Assembly (NCBI RefSeq): GCF_002001165.1
Contig: NZ_MUNQ01000018.1
Location: 1-64,000 of the forward strand
DNA length: 64,000 nucleotides
Direction of reading: 5' to 3'
Source of the DNA: Rhodanobacter sp. C05
Lineage (GTDB): Bacteria > Pseudomonadota > Gammaproteobacteria > Xanthomonadales > Rhodanobacteraceae
In this document: in pieces, positions 7,648 through 19,419 of the stretch
Layout of the letters: each line of letters starts with the position of its first letter
How positions within the stretch are numbered: position 1 is the first letter of the stretch
Notes under the pieces: model-generated
Databases searched by the model: none
What the model was told of the DNA's origin: nothing
The model's input: only the letters and a program-made list of their open reading frames with translations
Translations under genes and position numbers: made by a program

Positions 7648-7776
7648 CTAGGGATGGTCTGTATAACTCGTCATTCCAGCGAAAGCTGGAATCCAGCGTC
7701 TTCCGTGCCTTGCGACGGCGCTGGATCCCAGCTTTCGCTGGGATGACGGGCAAACGCTTATTCAGACCATCCCTAG
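7648..7776. repeat. REP-doublet / MITE-like element, copy 1
   Basis: 129 bp element bounded by inverted ends (CTAGGGATGGTCTG / its complement at 7763-7776). Inside are two facing REP-like units, each a GAAA-loop hairpin (TTCCAGC-GAAA-GCTGGAA, and CCCAGC-TTTC-GCTGGG on the other side). The outer ends also pair across the whole element. It lies between the convergent M61 peptidase and peroxiredoxin genes, so it may stop or stabilise both transcripts. A second copy with the same layout lies at 16178-16308. It carries no coding sequence, so any mobility would need a transposase (REP-associated RAYT type) encoded elsewhere. Confidence 0.88.
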
Positions 7777-13782: not shown

Positions 13783-13896
13783 AGTGAGGTTGAAGGAGCG
13801 CACGAGTCATCTTGAGCCTGTGCGGATTTGGCCATTTGACCCTTTGATCCCGTGACTCGTCGTAGACTCGGCCAAATGCCCGGGCCAGCTATAGCC

Positions 13897-15000
13897 ATGA
13901 CGCATCCCACTCCAGCTGACGAGCACGCGCAGGGGCAGCGCTCACCATGGAGCGAGCGCGATGCGTCTGATCGGCGTGCCATGCTCACCGAGATCCTGGC
14001 GCAGGTGTCGATGGAGGCGTTGCAGGGCGATACCCTCGAAGCCATGCTGCAGGGCATAGTCGATTGCGTGGCACGGCGGCTGCCGGTGGCCATTGCCAGC
14101 ATCATCCTGCTCAACGACGAGGGTACGCATTTCGTGCAGGAGGTCTGGTCGGGCATCGAGCTCAATCTGCCCGGTGATCTGCCGTGGCCCGTGACGATAG
14201 GGGCATCCGGCCGTTGCGTGCGCAGCGGAGAGGCGCAGCTGATCGCCGATGTGGAAACCGACGCAGATTACGTGCCGGGCAACGGTCAGGTGAAATCCGA
14301 ATATCTGGTACCGATCCGGCATCGAGCGCACCTGCATGGCGTGCTCAATCTGGAAAGTACCTCGGCGGACTTCTTCACGCCGGAAGTGTGTGCGATGTTC
14401 GACGCCGTCGCGCTGCAGATCGCCGGCGCCGTCCACCTCGCGCGCGTGGTGCGTGAGCTGGAGCTGGCCAATCGCAAGCTGGAGCAGCTGTCGATGAGCG
14501 ACGGTCTCACCGGCATCGCCAACCGGCGCAGTTTCGATCGGCGTCTTGAGGAGGAGTGGCAGCAGCACGCACAGGAAGGCAGGTACCTGGCCTTGCTGCT
14601 GGTCGATGTCGACTGCTTCAAGGCACTCAACGACGCCTGCGGCCATGTGTTCGGTGATGAATGCCTGCGCATGCTGGCGCGGCTGTGTGCCGAGATTGTC
14701 CACGGCACGCAGGCGCACGTCTCGCGCTACGGTGGCGAGGAGTTCGTGCTGTTGCTGCCGGGCTGTGACTTGCGCGAGGCGCAGCGGCTTGGCGTGGATC
14801 TGTGTCGCCGCATCGAGGCGCTGGCCATCGGCCATCCCGCATCGATCGTGGCCGACCGCGTCACCGTCAGCATCGGCGTCAGTGCTTCGCGCCCGGACCC
14901 GAAGCAGCCACCGGAGTCCCTGATCGTGGTGGCCGACCGCGCACTTTACGAAGCCAAGGCCAAGGGTCGCAATGGCGTCGTCGCGCTGCCTTGCGCGTAA
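13897..15000 (+). CDS. GAF-GGDEF diguanylate cyclase
   Basis: 367 aa cytoplasmic c-di-GMP synthase. A GAF domain covers about residues 30-185 (ends 'LHGVLNLES'), a short coil follows (VRELELANRKLEQL), and the GGDEF domain occupies about 195-362 with DxD residues in VDVDCFK and active motif RYGGEEF. The inhibitory RxxD motif is absent (HGTQAHVS at that place), so product inhibition may be weak. The start is uncertain: ATG at 13897, ATG at 13876 and GTG at 13852 are all in frame and none has a good ribosome site. Ligand of the GAF domain unknown. Confidence 0.92.
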   Translation: MTHPTPADEHAQGQRSPWSERDASDRRAMLTEILAQVSMEALQGDTLEAMLQGIVDCVARRLPVAIASIILLNDEGTHFVQEVWSGIELNLPGDLPWPVTIGASGRCVRSGEAQLIADVETDADYVPGNGQVKSEYLVPIRHRAHLHGVLNLESTSADFFTPEVCAMFDAVALQIAGAVHLARVVRELELANRKLEQLSMSDGLTGIANRRSFDRRLEEEWQQHAQEGRYLALLLVDVDCFKALNDACGHVFGDECLRMLARLCAEIVHGTQAHVSRYGGEEFVLLLPGCDLREAQRLGVDLCRRIEALAIGHPASIVADRVTVSIGVSASRPDPKQPPESLIVVADRALYEAKAKGRNGVVALPCA

Positions 15001-16112: not shown

Positions 16113-16177
16113 TTGGCGGTCAGGTGCACACGCGGCACTCCGACATTGAGTTTCGGCAAGAAGTCGCACTGACCTGC

Positions 16178-16308
16178 TTTAGGAATGGTCTGAATAGCTC
16201 GTCATCCCAGCGAAAGCTGGGATCCAGTGCCGTTGCAATGCGCTGAAGACGCTGGATCCCAGCTTTCGCTGGGATGACGGGCACAGGCTTATTCAGGCCA
16301 TTCCTAAA
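16178..16308. repeat. REP-doublet / MITE-like element, copy 2
   Basis: 131 bp, same layout as 7648-7776: ends TTTAGGAATGG / CCATTCCTAAA, inner facing hairpins CCCAGC-GAAA-GCTGGG and CCCAGC-TTTC-GCTGGG, and the same 'GGTCTGAATA' step between end and hairpin. It lies between the convergent msrA and siaD-like genes. Its right end overlaps the coding end of the latter: complement of 16304-16306 is that gene's TAG stop. Confidence 0.88.
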
Positions 16309-17008
16309 AGACGACAGCATTCCTGCCGCGGCGTTTTGCTTCATACAACGCCTGGTCTGCACGTCCATAAGCATCGCCGAACGTGCTTCCGGATGGCGTG
16401 TGGCTGACGCCGAAGCTCGCCGTCACGGTGCAGCCCGCAGGCATGTCAAACGGTGTCGCAGCGACTTTTGCACGCATGCGTTCGGCCAGCGCGACGGCTG
16501 TTTGAAGCTCCATGCACGGCAGGACAACGGTGAACTCCTCGCCGCCGACACGGCCGATTTCCGCATGCTCGGGAGCGACGGTGCGCAGGCGTGCGACGAG
16601 TTCCACGATCACCGCATCGCCGGCCGGATGACCGTGCTCGTCGTTGACGCGTTTGAAATGATCGATGTCCAGCACGATCAGCGCGAGCGTACCGTCGCGC
16701 AGATGTGCCTCGGTAAGTTCGATGACGGCGCGCCGGTTGAAGGCGCCGGTCAGCGGATCGTGCTTCGCCTTGTAGTCGAGCTCGGCGGCGAGCTGGGTCA
16801 GTCTGGCGTTCAGCGTGTTGAGCTCGCGTTCCTGGCGGTCGCTGTGCACGATGACGCGCCGCGTTTCGCGCACCAGCCGGCGGAACTGGACGATGAGCGC
16901 GCCAAGCGCGTCGCGATAACTTCCGGCATCGAGTGAATCCAGCGCATGCGTGTCCGTGGCGGCACGCAGCGCCGATTCCTCAGCCTCGAAGAGATCGTGT
17001 TCGGCCAT
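16304..17008 (-). CDS. siaD: SiaD-like diguanylate cyclase
   Basis: 234 aa. Cytoplasmic GGDEF protein, last gene of the SiaABCD-like operon. An N-terminal helical/coiled region (about 1-75) is where SiaC binds in Pseudomonas; then the GGDEF domain with IVLDIDHFKRVND and active motif RVGGEEF. In P. aeruginosa unphosphorylated SiaC activates SiaD. ATG at 17008 shares one base with the stop of the siaC-like gene (TGATG); an in-frame TTG lies one codon upstream. The last residue and stop codon (TTT TAG) fall inside the end of REP-doublet copy 2, so the original C-terminus may have been altered by insertion. Confidence 0.88.
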   Translation of the reverse strand: MAEHDLFEAEESALRAATDTHALDSLDAGSYRDALGALIVQFRRLVRETRRVIVHSDRQERELNTLNARLTQLAAELDYKAKHDPLTGAFNRRAVIELTEAHLRDGTLALIVLDIDHFKRVNDEHGHPAGDAVIVELVARLRTVAPEHAEIGRVGGEEFTVVLPCMELQTAVALAERMRAKVAATPFDMPAGCTVTASFGVSHTPSGSTFGDAYGRADQALYEAKRRGRNAVVF

Positions 17009-17412
17009 CAACTGACGGTCGGCAGGTCACGAAATTCAAGAGCAGTGAAGTCGTCGTGCAGTTCGCTGCCGAAATCCCCGATGGTGTCGTCTTCCGGGTC
17101 GTGGTGCCAGTTCAGCACGACGCGTACGCCGCGCGTGGCCGCGCTGTTGAGTGCGTCGAAGAAGGCGAACAGCATTTTCGTGCTGGAACTGTTGAAGTAG
17201 ATCAGCGCCACATCGACCGTGATCGTGGTGCCATCGCCGCAACCCGCCAGATAGTCCCGCAGCTGGTGGATGATGCTGCCATAGAACGCGGCGGCGTTTT
17301 CCGGATACGACTCGCCTTTCAGCGCGAGTTCGTGCGTATCGAAGCGGAAGTCGACTTCGGGCGAGTCCGCCGTTGCCGCAAGGTACAGGTTTTCCATTGG
17401 TGCATTGCTCAT
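17008..17412 (-). CDS. siaC: SiaC-family regulatory phosphoprotein (DUF1987)
   Basis: 134 aa. In P. aeruginosa SiaC is phosphorylated by SiaB and dephosphorylated by SiaA, and only the unphosphorylated form activates SiaD. This protein has the DUF1987 marks: an N-terminal 'LYLAATADSPEVDF', a central VALIYFNSSSTKMLF with a Ser/Thr cluster at residues 75-78 where the phospho-acceptor should lie, and a C-terminal 'VVLNWHHDPEDDTIGDFG'. The start is 1 bp after the stop of the kinase gene, and its stop overlaps the siaD-like start, so the set is tightly coupled. Confidence 0.88.
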   Translation of the reverse strand: MSNAPMENLYLAATADSPEVDFRFDTHELALKGESYPENAAAFYGSIIHQLRDYLAGCGDGTTITVDVALIYFNSSSTKMLFAFFDALNSAATRGVRVVLNWHHDPEDDTIGDFGSELHDDFTALEFRDLPTVS

Positions 17413-17413
17413 A

Positions 17414-17968
17414 TCAGACAGTCACTTTCAGGTAGAACATCATGTCGTCGTGGTTGTCGAGCGGGGCGAATTCGAATTCGAGCGGTTCGCTCGCGTCGCG
17501 TGCGACGGTGAGGAATCCAAGCCCGGCCCCCTTGCTGCCTTCCGGTTGCTCGGAGCGCAGCGTGTCCTGGTAGGCGCGCTTGATTTCTTCCAGTGTCATC
17601 GACTTGAGCGGCTCGAGCTTTTCGCGCAACGGTGCGACATCACTCGCGGCGACGCGATTCGAGCACATCAGGTAGAAGCGGTCGCCGGTGTGGCCGATGC
17701 AGACCGAGCCCTGGCGGACTTCGGCATCGTCCTGCGTCGCTGGTGTGAGCGCTTCGGACGAATAGTGAATGATGTTCTGCGCCATCTCGACAAAGCATGA
17801 GAACAGCTTGCGCTTGGCGGAGGCAGTGGTATCAGCCTGCTTCATGCTCAGCTTGATGGTGTCCGCCATGGCCGACACGATGGTCTGCGAGAAATAGCCG
17901 TAGTAATAGAAGACGATCTTGCGCTGCGCGACGAAGTCCGAAAATATGCGGTACTCGGAATAGTTCAT
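17414..17968 (-). CDS. siaB: SiaB-family protein kinase (DUF6272)
   Basis: 184 aa. GHKL-fold Ser/Thr kinase expected to phosphorylate the SiaC-like protein. N-terminal motif MNYSEYRIFSDFVAQRKIVF and FYYYGYFSQTIV match SiaB; the ATP-binding N-box is VEMAQNIIHYS and a glycine loop GSKGAGLGF lies near residue 155. ATG at 17968 begins 9 bp after the phosphatase gene stop; a GTG at 17980 overlapping that stop (GTGA) is the alternative. Third partner-switch component between phosphatase and target. Confidence 0.86.
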   Translation of the reverse strand: MNYSEYRIFSDFVAQRKIVFYYYGYFSQTIVSAMADTIKLSMKQADTTASAKRKLFSCFVEMAQNIIHYSSEALTPATQDDAEVRQGSVCIGHTGDRFYLMCSNRVAASDVAPLREKLEPLKSMTLEEIKRAYQDTLRSEQPEGSKGAGLGFLTVARDASEPLEFEFAPLDNHDDMMFYLKVTV

Positions 17969-17976
17969 GCGGGTTC

Positions 17977-19218
17977 TCACTGCACGCGCAGGCAGAAAAG
18001 GGAGACGTCGTCGCGGCGCCGGTGTTGCCCCTGGTACTGGCCATGCTCCTGCATGATCGCTGCAGCCTGTTCCGCTGCCGGCATGTCACGGCAGCCAACA
18101 AGCAAGTCGCGCAGGCGACGCTTGCCGAAGGCGATGTTGCGGGGGCCACCGATCTGGTCGGTCAGGCCATCGGTGGCCGCGTACAGCAGGTCGTTCTGCT
18201 GCAGCGTCAGCGTACGGTTCTGCCAGCGGTGGTCGACCGCCGTTGCGACATAGCCGACACCGACTCGATCCGTTTCGTGCGTGGTGACCGCCGCTGCGCC
18301 GGCGTGCAGCACATGCAGGGGCATGCGCGCGCCGGCATAGGTCATCACGCGGTCGCGCCGATTGAGCCACATGAACAATGCATCCAGGCCGTCATCGGAC
18401 TGCTCGCCGGCAACCCGCGAACCGATCTGTCCCAGCGACTGCTTGATCTTGCGGTTGAGCGTGCCGAGCAACTGGGCCGGATCGGCAGGGCCGTCGCGTT
18501 CCAGCGCCTGGGCGAGCCAGGATGAAGAGATCAGGGTCATGAAGGCGCCGGGCACGCCGTGTCCGGTGCAGTCGGCCATCGCGACGAACACGCCGTGGTC
18601 GAATTTGGCGCACAGGAAAAAGTCGCCGCCAACCGTATCGCGCGGCTGCCAGATCATGGCCGAATCCGGCAGCTCTGCCTTCAGGAGTTCCTGCGAGGTA
18701 TGCAGCATCGCGCGCTGGATGACGCTCGCGTAGTCGATGCTCTGCATGATCTGGCGGTTCTTCGCCTCCTGCAGGTCGGCCACCATGCGCATGAGGTCGA
18801 GACCAAAGCCGACACCCAGGAAGTCGTTGCCACGCACGACGAGGAAGCCGTCGGCGAGGGCATTGCTGCGGCTGTCGGCGACCAGCTTCGCGGCGCGCTC
18901 GATCGACGTGTCCGCCTCGATGATCAGCGGTTGCCCATCCATGAAGGCAACGCAGCTCTTGTGTTCGTGCAGCTCCTGCCGGAACGGCCTGGCCATTTCG
19001 GACTGGAACGTGTGTCGTTTGATCAGGCCGAGCGCGCGCGTACCGTCGACCACGGGCAGGCTGATCAGCTCCCGATGCTGGTCGAACAACTCGCGTACAG
19101 TCGCATTTGTATCCGTCGGGGCGACCATGGGTACCGGCCGGCACAGGTTGGCGGCGCGCGGCATCTCGGCGGGGCCGAAACCCCGCATTCCAGACATGAT
19201 TTGCAACGACGTGGTCAT
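17977..19218 (-). CDS. siaA: SiaA-like PP2C/SpoIIE phosphatase with N-terminal CBS-like pair
   Basis: 413 aa. The C-terminal PP2C (SpoIIE) domain (about 200-410) has metal ligands in PRDTVGGDFF, MADCTGHGVPGAFM and the final DDVSLFCL; it should dephosphorylate the SiaC-like protein. Unlike P. aeruginosa SiaA, which has membrane helices, a periplasmic domain and HAMP, this protein is soluble. Residues 20-170 resemble two CBS motifs (ISLPVVDGTRALGLIKR and GFLVVRGNDFLGVGFGLDL), followed by a helical linker. ATG at 19218 has GGGGGACGGA directly upstream; the frame is open to 19308. First gene of the operon; the CBS pair probably binds a nucleotide, which is inference. Confidence 0.87.
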   Translation of the reverse strand: MTTSLQIMSGMRGFGPAEMPRAANLCRPVPMVAPTDTNATVRELFDQHRELISLPVVDGTRALGLIKRHTFQSEMARPFRQELHEHKSCVAFMDGQPLIIEADTSIERAAKLVADSRSNALADGFLVVRGNDFLGVGFGLDLMRMVADLQEAKNRQIMQSIDYASVIQRAMLHTSQELLKAELPDSAMIWQPRDTVGGDFFLCAKFDHGVFVAMADCTGHGVPGAFMTLISSSWLAQALERDGPADPAQLLGTLNRKIKQSLGQIGSRVAGEQSDDGLDALFMWLNRRDRVMTYAGARMPLHVLHAGAAAVTTHETDRVGVGYVATAVDHRWQNRTLTLQQNDLLYAATDGLTDQIGGPRNIAFGKRRLRDLLVGCRDMPAAEQAAAIMQEHGQYQGQHRRRDDVSLFCLRVQ

Positions 19219-19419
19219 TCCGTCCCCCGGATGACCATGCAGGATCGGAAGATTTGATGACGGATTGATGACAGGGCCTTCCGTATGGCGCGACGATGCA
19301 GGCAACATCCCGGATGTTCAACCTGAACCTGGCGCATGTCGATTTCGGGAGCGCTCGTTCGACGCGAGAGTGAGGGGCACCGATCAGGCGGCGCAACCGG
19401 ATATCCAAGAGACCCATGC

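What the first reader, a model, noticed from the sequence alone, without database searches (positions are those of the whole stretch)
16304..19218. SiaABCD-like c-di-GMP partner-switch operon with a soluble CBS-type SiaA
Four overlapping or adjacent minus-strand genes encode a PP2C phosphatase, a DUF6272 kinase, a DUF1987 phosphoprotein and a GGDEF cyclase, the order of P. aeruginosa siaABCD. The phosphatase differs: no membrane helices, no periplasmic domain or HAMP, but an N-terminal CBS-like pair. The input may therefore be a cytoplasmic nucleotide rather than a surface or surfactant cue. The domain composition is seen in sequence; the signal is inference.
Basis: partly seen in the sequence, partly recalled or inferred. 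Interest (0 to 1): 0.74.

Follow-up and report, generated by a model that had tools for sequence, protein, structure and literature searches.

The report
CBS-gated SiaABCD c-di-GMP switch
A four-gene bacterial switch for the biofilm messenger c-di-GMP carries a soluble CBS sensor-like input on its phosphatase instead of the membrane sensor known from Pseudomonas, and this version forms its own lineage in several groups of proteobacteria.

Summary
The genes at 16304-19218 (minus strand) are siaABCD in the P. aeruginosa order. The phosphatase has no membrane segment and an N-terminal CBS pair: Pfam CBS above cut-off, AlphaFold2 pLDDT 88, best Foldseek matches AcuB with AMP/ADP/ATP/Ap4A. CBS-type SiaA forms one clade on the phosphatase tree (98), with matching SiaB and SiaB+SiaC clades (97), apart from ten membrane/HAMP-type SiaA. 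Found through the CBS profile alone, 16 of 16 further CBS-phosphatases have siaB beside them. SiaD of this lineage lacks the RxxD inhibition site (0 of 19, against 14 of 16 others) and has one SiaC-binding motif where the Pseudomonas-like type has two. In some genomes the SiaD slot holds an EAL-GGDEF or HD-domain protein. The same CBS subfamily sits inside EAL-GGDEF enzymes. Best explanation: a cytosolic ligand on the CBS pair gates dephosphorylation of SiaC, which switches SiaD. The ligand is unknown; c-di-AMP is unlikely because no synthase was found in this genome. New variant of a known kind; nine literature searches listed no description of it.

The parts
17977..19218 (-). siaA-like gene: CBS pair + long helix + PP2C/SpoIIE phosphatase, 413 aa
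   Evidence: best fold match 6k4e, SiaA-PP2C
18808..19161 (-). CBS pair (residues 20-137 of SiaA)
   Evidence: Pfam CBS above cut-off; AF2 pLDDT 88 with two beta-alpha-beta-beta-alpha units by my reading of the listed elements; Foldseek AcuB E about 1e-8 to 5e-8, TMq 0.73-0.75 in the first nine rows
18673..18804 (-). 44-residue helix (residues 139-182) joining CBS pair and phosphatase
   Evidence: AF2 model; contains Q156, S160, I161, Y163, A164, invariant in 19 sequences
17980..18663 (-). PP2C phosphatase domain (residues 186-413) with D199, D216, D350 and D403/D404 at the metal-site positions
   Evidence: Pfam SpoIIE; alignment to 6k4e, 4e-42; invariant columns; Asp roles from PMC7647112 passages
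17414..17968 (-). siaB-like kinase (DUF6272), Glu box VEMAQN kept
   Evidence: the equivalent Glu is residue 61 in a Pseudomonas-like relative, L056
17008..17412 (-). siaC-like phosphoprotein; FNSSS, Ser at the Thr68 position
16304..17008 (-). siaD-like diguanylate cyclase; GGEEF, no RxxD, one SDRxE stalk motif
19219..19275 (-). 57-bp leader of the operon holding TGTCATCAATCCGTCATCAAA, conserved in three relatives (candidate control region)
   Evidence: function inferred

Best explanation
This is a soluble-input version of the SiaABCD partner switch. Inferred working: a cytosolic small molecule binds the CBS pair of a SiaA dimer; the change is passed along the 44-residue helix to the PP2C domains and sets phosphatase activity; SiaB phosphorylates SiaC (on Ser, at the Thr68 position) and SiaA removes the phosphate; unphosphorylated SiaC binds the single SDR motif on the SiaD stalk and turns on c-di-GMP synthesis. 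SiaD lacks the RxxD inhibition site, so the usual product feedback should be weak or absent and control should rest mainly on the SiaA/SiaB balance. Shown here by sequence and model: domains, fold, conserved catalytic and docking residues, co-inheritance of the parts. Inferred: ligand binding, the direction of the signal, and every biochemical step, which is transferred from P. aeruginosa.
For: Domains and order. CBS fold. PP2C closest to the solved SiaA-PP2C. SiaC closest to solved SiaC. SiaD's best PDB hit is 7e6g, an entry that also holds SiaC. The CBS type is one side of a branch for PP2C (98), SiaB (97), SiaB+SiaC (97) and SiaC (81), so input and partners were inherited together. Linkage without bias towards SiaC: 7 of 7 relatives found with SiaA have siaB, siaC and siaD beside it, and 16 of 16 further CBS-phosphatase loci found with the CBS profile have siaB (some cut by the locus end), 7 of these with siaC in view too. 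The other 12 CBS-type loci were found through SiaC, so their siaC linkage is by construction. RxxD: 0 of 19 CBS-type SiaD, 12 of 14 in loci whose phosphatase has no CBS, 2 of 2 with no phosphatase in view. SiaC-SiaD contacts and the role of T68 from PMC8457831 (section 8 read); linker-dimer mechanism for this phosphatase class from PMC12143880 (passages, part of the abstract). dN/dS 0.06-0.19.
Against: No ligand, binding or activity was tested. The CBS pair could be a plain dimerisation module. Pfam CBS is below cut-off in 2 of 4 further CBS-phosphatases scanned (L099 23.8, L094 19, cut-off 24). Of 15 extended loci (L115-L129), only 4 have a SiaD-like cyclase next to siaABC, and three of those four read KxxD, not RxxD, while L115 has neither, so cyclase output is not universal and the loss of the I-site is not equally complete. 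The Arg at the position of P. aeruginosa SiaD R201 (whose mutation removed feedback, passage) is kept in the window protein, so loss of feedback is a prediction only. Ser at the Thr68 position is not special to the CBS type: 14 of 24 non-CBS loci and 4 of 4 without a phosphatase in view have it; Thr is the mark of the ten Pseudomonas-like loci. The single stalk motif may likewise be the commoner state: L079, not CBS-type, also has one. The model is a monomer; no dimer was modelled.
Confidence: 0.7

Rival explanations
1. The CBS pair binds an adenosine nucleotide (AMP/ADP/ATP/Ap4A), making the operon an energy-charge to c-di-GMP link.
For: Best fold matches are AcuB structures holding AMP, ADP, ATP or Ap4A; CBSX2 with AMP is at rank 17. 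The window keeps Asp141 in CBS2; the EAL-type relatives keep S/T138 in 11 of 13 and D141 in 11 of 13.
Against: CBS1 lacks the acid (Thr70 here). Asp141 is kept in only 18 of 34 phosphatases (Gln 8, Arg 3, others 5); position 138 is Ser or Thr in 13 of 34 and Phe in the window. Nucleotide-free AcuB and c-di-AMP-bound OpuCA are among the matches as well: fold likeness does not carry ligand identity.
Confidence: 0.35
2. The CBS pair senses no small molecule: it dimerises SiaA or responds to ionic strength or a protein partner.
For: CBS pairs commonly dimerise (general knowledge). The most conserved part outside the CBS core is the stretch E82-K87-C89-M93-P97 between the two CBS units, which could be a protein contact.
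Against: R68 is 47 of 47 and C89 46 of 47 across two protein classes, stronger than dimerisation alone would seem to need; a pocket role for these was not tested.
Confidence: 0.3
3. SiaA acts on another STAS or SiaC-like protein elsewhere, and this SiaC is not its substrate.
For: STAS and PP2C partners can cross-talk (general knowledge).
Against: The genome holds one SiaC-family gene and one match to the phosphatase at E <= 0.001, both in this operon. PP2C, SiaB and SiaC trees agree on the CBS clade. STAS proteins elsewhere in the genome were not searched.
Confidence: 0.07

Closest known systems
SiaABCD of Pseudomonas aeruginosa
   Same: Gene order, PP2C domain (6k4e), SiaB kinase family, SiaC family (6k4f/6kko), SiaD stalk-GGDEF (7e6g); Asp metal-site positions, SiaB Glu box and SDR stalk motif kept
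   Different: SiaA input is a cytosolic CBS pair, not two membrane helices with HAMP (P. aeruginosa SiaA: PMC7647112 figure legend; ten Pseudomonas-like SiaA); Ser for Thr68 (shared with other non-Pseudomonas-like types); SiaD has no RxxD, one SiaC motif instead of two, and about 7 more residues between motif and GGDEF
RsbU/RsbZ-type sensor phosphatases of partner switches (PMC12143880, passages)
   Same: N-terminal sensor joined by a long helix to a PPM/PP2C phosphatase
   Different: Sensors named in the passages seen are PAS, GAF, receiver, HAMP and the RsbU N-domain; 'CBS' has 0 occurrences in that text; the output there is the general stress response
EAL-CBS-GGDEF proteins (one noted in Cupriavidus metallidurans, PMC6629876, passage; whether it is of this CBS subfamily was not tested)
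   Same: 11 of 11 non-phosphatase loci returned by the CBS profile have EAL and GGDEF by Pfam, 9 of 11 also CBS above cut-off; shared R68, E82, K87, C89, M93, P97
   Different: The CBS pair lies between EAL and a GGDEF domain whose motif looks degenerate in the ends seen (by eye); no phosphatase or partner switch is implied
Signalling-helix proteins (PMC1592074, passages)
   Same: That 2006 survey lists CBS among N-terminal sensors and PP2C among C-terminal outputs joined by a signalling helix, so a CBS-helix-PP2C protein would not surprise its authors
   Different: The passages seen name no CBS-PP2C protein, SiaC or c-di-GMP partner switch; whether the helix here is an S-helix was not tested

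Membership tests
SiaABCD partner switch (broad family) | PP2C phosphatase, SiaB-family kinase, SiaC-family protein and GGDEF cyclase in one operon | tested here: met
   co-transcription itself was not tested
SiaABCD partner switch (broad family) | Catalytic and docking residues kept (PP2C Asp residues, SiaB Glu, hydroxyl residue at SiaC 68, SDR on the SiaD stalk) | tested here: met
   Ser replaces Thr at SiaC 68
SiaABCD partner switch (broad family) | SiaB phosphorylates SiaC, SiaA reverses it, SiaC activates SiaD | not testable with these tools
   needs protein biochemistry
P. aeruginosa-type SiaA (NF038263 equivalog) | Full-length match above 700 bits, membrane helices and HAMP | tested here: not met
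   192 bits, only model positions 406-657; no membrane segment; no HAMP among Pfam matches
P. aeruginosa-type SiaD | Two SiaC-binding stalk motifs 32 residues apart and an RxxD I-site | tested here: not met
   One motif in the window SiaD and in 17 of 18 distinct CBS-type stalks printed (L043 has none by the pattern; L051, L063, L118, L119, L121 were not printed); two in 8 of 9 Pseudomonas-like stalks printed; RxxD 0 of 19
CBS/Bateman module | Two beta-alpha-beta-beta-alpha units with the CBS fold | tested here: met
CBS/Bateman module | Adenosine-ligand binding with the S/T-x-x-D signature (recalled) | tested here: inconclusive
   CBS1 degenerate, CBS2 has F138 and D141
c-di-AMP receptor CBS | Organism makes c-di-AMP | tested here: not met
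   DAC profile 0 of 1 in the own genome; control 11 of 14

The most novel reading that the evidence does not exclude
The CBS subfamily is a dedicated c-di-GMP-network input: the same cytosolic ligand is read by SiaA (making c-di-GMP through SiaABCD) and by EAL-CBS-GGDEF enzymes (breaking it down), giving push-pull control. In the CBS-type operon, feedback has moved from the lost SiaD I-site to the SiaA CBS pair, possibly read as a guanine nucleotide or c-di-GMP itself.
Probability: 0.13. Interest if true: 0.78.

Novelty: new variant of a known kind. Interest (0 to 1): 0.52.

Why it matters
In the papers seen here SiaABCD is studied in P. aeruginosa, with a membrane-bound SiaA. A sister lineage with a cytosolic, ligand-type input, an altered SiaD and no canonical product-inhibition site suggests that the core A-B-C switch is a portable module whose input and output can both be exchanged. 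It offers soluble proteins in which the input signal can be sought by ligand screening, which is harder with the membrane-bound SiaA. The shared CBS subfamily in EAL-GGDEF enzymes makes a direct test of common ligand control of c-di-GMP synthesis and breakdown possible.

Tried and rejected
c-di-AMP as ligand: made unlikely by the absence of the synthase. Recent sporadic fusion: rejected, since the CBS type is one clade with matching partners. Chance or misread CBS: rejected. tRNA-borne island: no tRNA in the 64 kb window; one tRNA-Ala lies about 260 bp past the operon in L037, none in L038 or L039. Sigma-70 promoter: none by consensus scan; terminator-like hits at chance level, 3 found against a mean of 2.8. 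Whole-model Foldseek listed only PP2C-type phosphatase entries in the 50 rows shown, so the CBS part was modelled alone. The count of long extra CBS-matching ORFs in genomes with a CBS-phosphatase locus (14 of 19, against any match in 55 of 181 other genomes; Fisher p 0.0005; counted by hand) rests on ORF length for most rows, ignores kinship, and leaves matches in ORFs of 447-492 aa unexamined; and the window's own genome has no second CBS match. It is not used as proof of push-pull control. The 3 kb homology block with differing flanks suggests transfer as a unit, but donor and mechanism were not found.

Rows dropped or not taken: one search removed one duplicate CBS region (20 to 19). Searches removed repeated sequences. 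One search printed only SiaD under 400 aa with a recognisable D-x-LT start. Of 83 SiaC-family places listed (my count), 36 regions were fetched, chosen by hand and not at random, plus 4 from the own-order search; the trees hold 44-48 rows. G832 (L094, short contig) was not extended.
Full report
What is there. The four genes lie on the minus strand at 16304-19218 in the order phosphatase, DUF6272 kinase, SiaC/DUF1987 protein, GGDEF cyclase, with stop-start overlaps or gaps of a few bases. Pfam assigns SpoIIE plus CBS, DUF6272, SiaC and GGDEF, all above cut-off. NCBIfam puts the kinase in the SiaB family but leaves the four proteins below the SiaA-D equivalog cut-offs; the SiaA model is matched only in its phosphatase half. 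The closest solved structures are SiaA-PP2C 6k4e, SiaC 6k4f/6kko and, for SiaD, 7e6g, an entry that also holds SiaC. The genome has one match to SiaA and one SiaC-family gene.

The CBS claim. The region passes the Pfam CBS cut-off. Modelled alone from eight sequences it gives pLDDT 88 and two CBS units. The first nine Foldseek rows are AcuB with AMP, ADP, ATP or Ap4A (TMq 0.73-0.75); CBSX2, CBSX1, nucleotide-free AcuB and c-di-AMP-bound OpuCA follow. The whole-protein model (pLDDT 80.5) shows the CBS pair, a helix at 139-182, then PP2C. No membrane segment was found. Further CBS-phosphatases scanned with Pfam were near the cut-off: L090 and L088 above it, L099 and L094 below.

It is a lineage, not a one-off. 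The single genome-contig scan found seven relatives: Rhodanobacter sp. PCA2 and two Dyella at 83-86% identity, two Cupriavidus, a Burkholderiaceae MAG and an Alcaligenaceae genome at 47-50%; all seven sit in siaABCD operons. Among the phosphatase loci in hand (44 with the window) 20 are CBS-type, 18 have predicted membrane segments and 6 neither. Ten of the 18 are Pseudomonas-like: they match the NCBIfam SiaA model along its length (8 of 10 above cut-off) and have HAMP (10 of 10). The CBS type is one side of a branch on the PP2C tree (98), SiaB tree (97), SiaB+SiaC tree (97) and SiaC tree (81). These are quick trees, and L062 is a long branch.

Linkage. Searching 200 genomes of the order of G613 (Burkholderiales by my inference) with the CBS alignment alone gave 74 genomes with a match at E <= 1e-10. 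Of the 30 loci returned, 19 hold a phosphatase, and all 19 have siaB next to it; three of these repeat earlier loci, so 16 are new. The other 11 have EAL and GGDEF by Pfam, 9 of them also CBS above cut-off. Matches without a returned locus were not examined. So this CBS subfamily is fused, in what was seen, either to the SiaA phosphatase or into an EAL-GGDEF enzyme. Across 34 phosphatase and 13 EAL-type sequences R68 is 47 of 47, C89 46 of 47, M93 46 of 47, E82 43 of 47, K87 41 of 47.

Differences beyond the input. SiaD lacks RxxD in 19 of 19 CBS-type loci; 12 of 14 non-CBS loci and 2 of 2 without a phosphatase in view keep it. In four further CBS-type SiaD it is also absent, but three read KxxD. 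The stalk has one SDRxE motif (17 of 18 printed) where Pseudomonas-like SiaD has two SDxxQ motifs (8 of 9 printed), and about seven more residues separate motif from GGDEF. In P. aeruginosa four SiaC bind the two-motif stalks of a SiaD dimer, so a 2:2 complex is expected here (inference). SiaC has Ser where Pseudomonas-like SiaC has Thr (residue 68, the phosphorylated and SiaD-contacting residue in PMC8457831), in 20 of 20 CBS-type loci; but 14 of 24 non-CBS loci also have Ser, so this marks the Pseudomonas-like group rather than the CBS type. L079, not CBS-type, also has a single stalk motif, so only the I-site loss stands out as special to the CBS lineage.

Output swaps. Of the 20 first-set loci, 19 have a SiaD (L062 has none). 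Of 15 extended loci (L115-L129), 4 have a SiaD-like cyclase (L115, L118, L119, L121). One (L116) has an EAL-GGDEF protein in the SiaD slot, matching the CBS query by phmmer though not by Pfam, and another divergently upstream. Four (L125, L126, L128, L129) have an HD_5 protein after siaB, in gene order A-C-B; one was checked and keeps HHExxDGxGYP. Six have no output recognised next to them by eye (L122 has a GGDEF gene on the opposite strand). In L130 and L131 a DUF3369-GGDEF-EAL protein follows siaD.

Spread. SiaC-family genes are rare in the window's order, 5 of 299 genomes, and commoner in the phylum sample, 67 of 398. In the window's family 16 of 233 genomes match the full alignment: 5 over the whole CBS-SiaA, 3 in the phosphatase part only, 8 in the CBS part only; the 20 same-genus genomes shown have none. 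Against L037, L038 and L039 about 2970 bp around the operon align; flanks do not, apart from one match of L038 to a distant part of the window. This fits transfer as a unit. On plasmid records, 10 Paraburkholderia, Caballeronia or Variovorax replicons hold relatives over at least 95% of the protein at 49-50.5% identity; two have a named feature there, 'SpoIIE family protein phosphatase' and 'hypothetical protein'.

Mechanism. The P. aeruginosa scheme (SiaB phosphorylates SiaC, SiaA reverses it, free SiaC activates SiaD; passages of PMC7647112 and PMC8457831) is transferred by homology. A 2025 paper links P. aeruginosa SiaA to membrane perturbation (PMC12834913, passages), an input that a soluble SiaA could not share in that form. 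For PPM phosphatases a dimeric helical linker is reported to carry the sensor signal (PMC12143880, passages); the 44-residue helix here fits that. The CBS ligand is open: adenosine-type residues are partly kept, c-di-AMP is unlikely.

Literature. Ten text searches were made; all but, which concerned RsbU, bore on this system. 'DUF1987' with 'CBS domain', 'CBS domain' with 'SpoIIE' and 'PP2C', and 'SpoIIE' with 'CBS domain' gave no paper; 'DUF1987 or DUF6272' gave only PMC8457831. Of the papers listed, only passages of ten and one full section were read; one search showed 20 of 87. PMC1592074 names CBS as a sensor and PP2C as an output of signalling-helix proteins in general. The library lacks most subscription journals, so an earlier description cannot be excluded. 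Chen et al. 2020, the source paper for SiaC, was not seen.

Noticed in passing
window 16169-16317 (copy 7669-7748): Nested inverted repeat (31-nt arms, 97% complementary, within an outer 28-nt pair) abutting the end of siaD; its 27-bp core has 43 matches in the genome at up to 2 mismatches and 0 for the reversed control, several in facing pairs as in a REPIN/MITE-like element.
   Followed up: partly
window 19219-19275: Operon leader with two GTCATCA repeats 11 bp apart (start to start), conserved in three relatives whose DNA further upstream is unrelated; possible regulator site.
   Followed up: partly
L116:2145-8348: siaABC flanked by two EAL-GGDEF proteins that match the CBS query, one divergent and one in the SiaD slot.
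   Followed up: partly
L125:3687-4817: HD_5 protein following CBS-siaA-siaC-siaB; keeps HHEHFDGTGYP but the first HD pair looks degenerate by eye.
   Followed up: partly
L062:2137-4582: CBS-PP2C, SiaB and SiaC without a SiaD; long branches in the trees, SiaC reads INSAST.
   Followed up: no
window 13852-15000: A second GGDEF protein, with a possible GAF-like N-terminus, about 1.3 kb beyond the operon past msrA/msrB-like genes, on the plus strand (naming by eye, not scanned).
   Followed up: no
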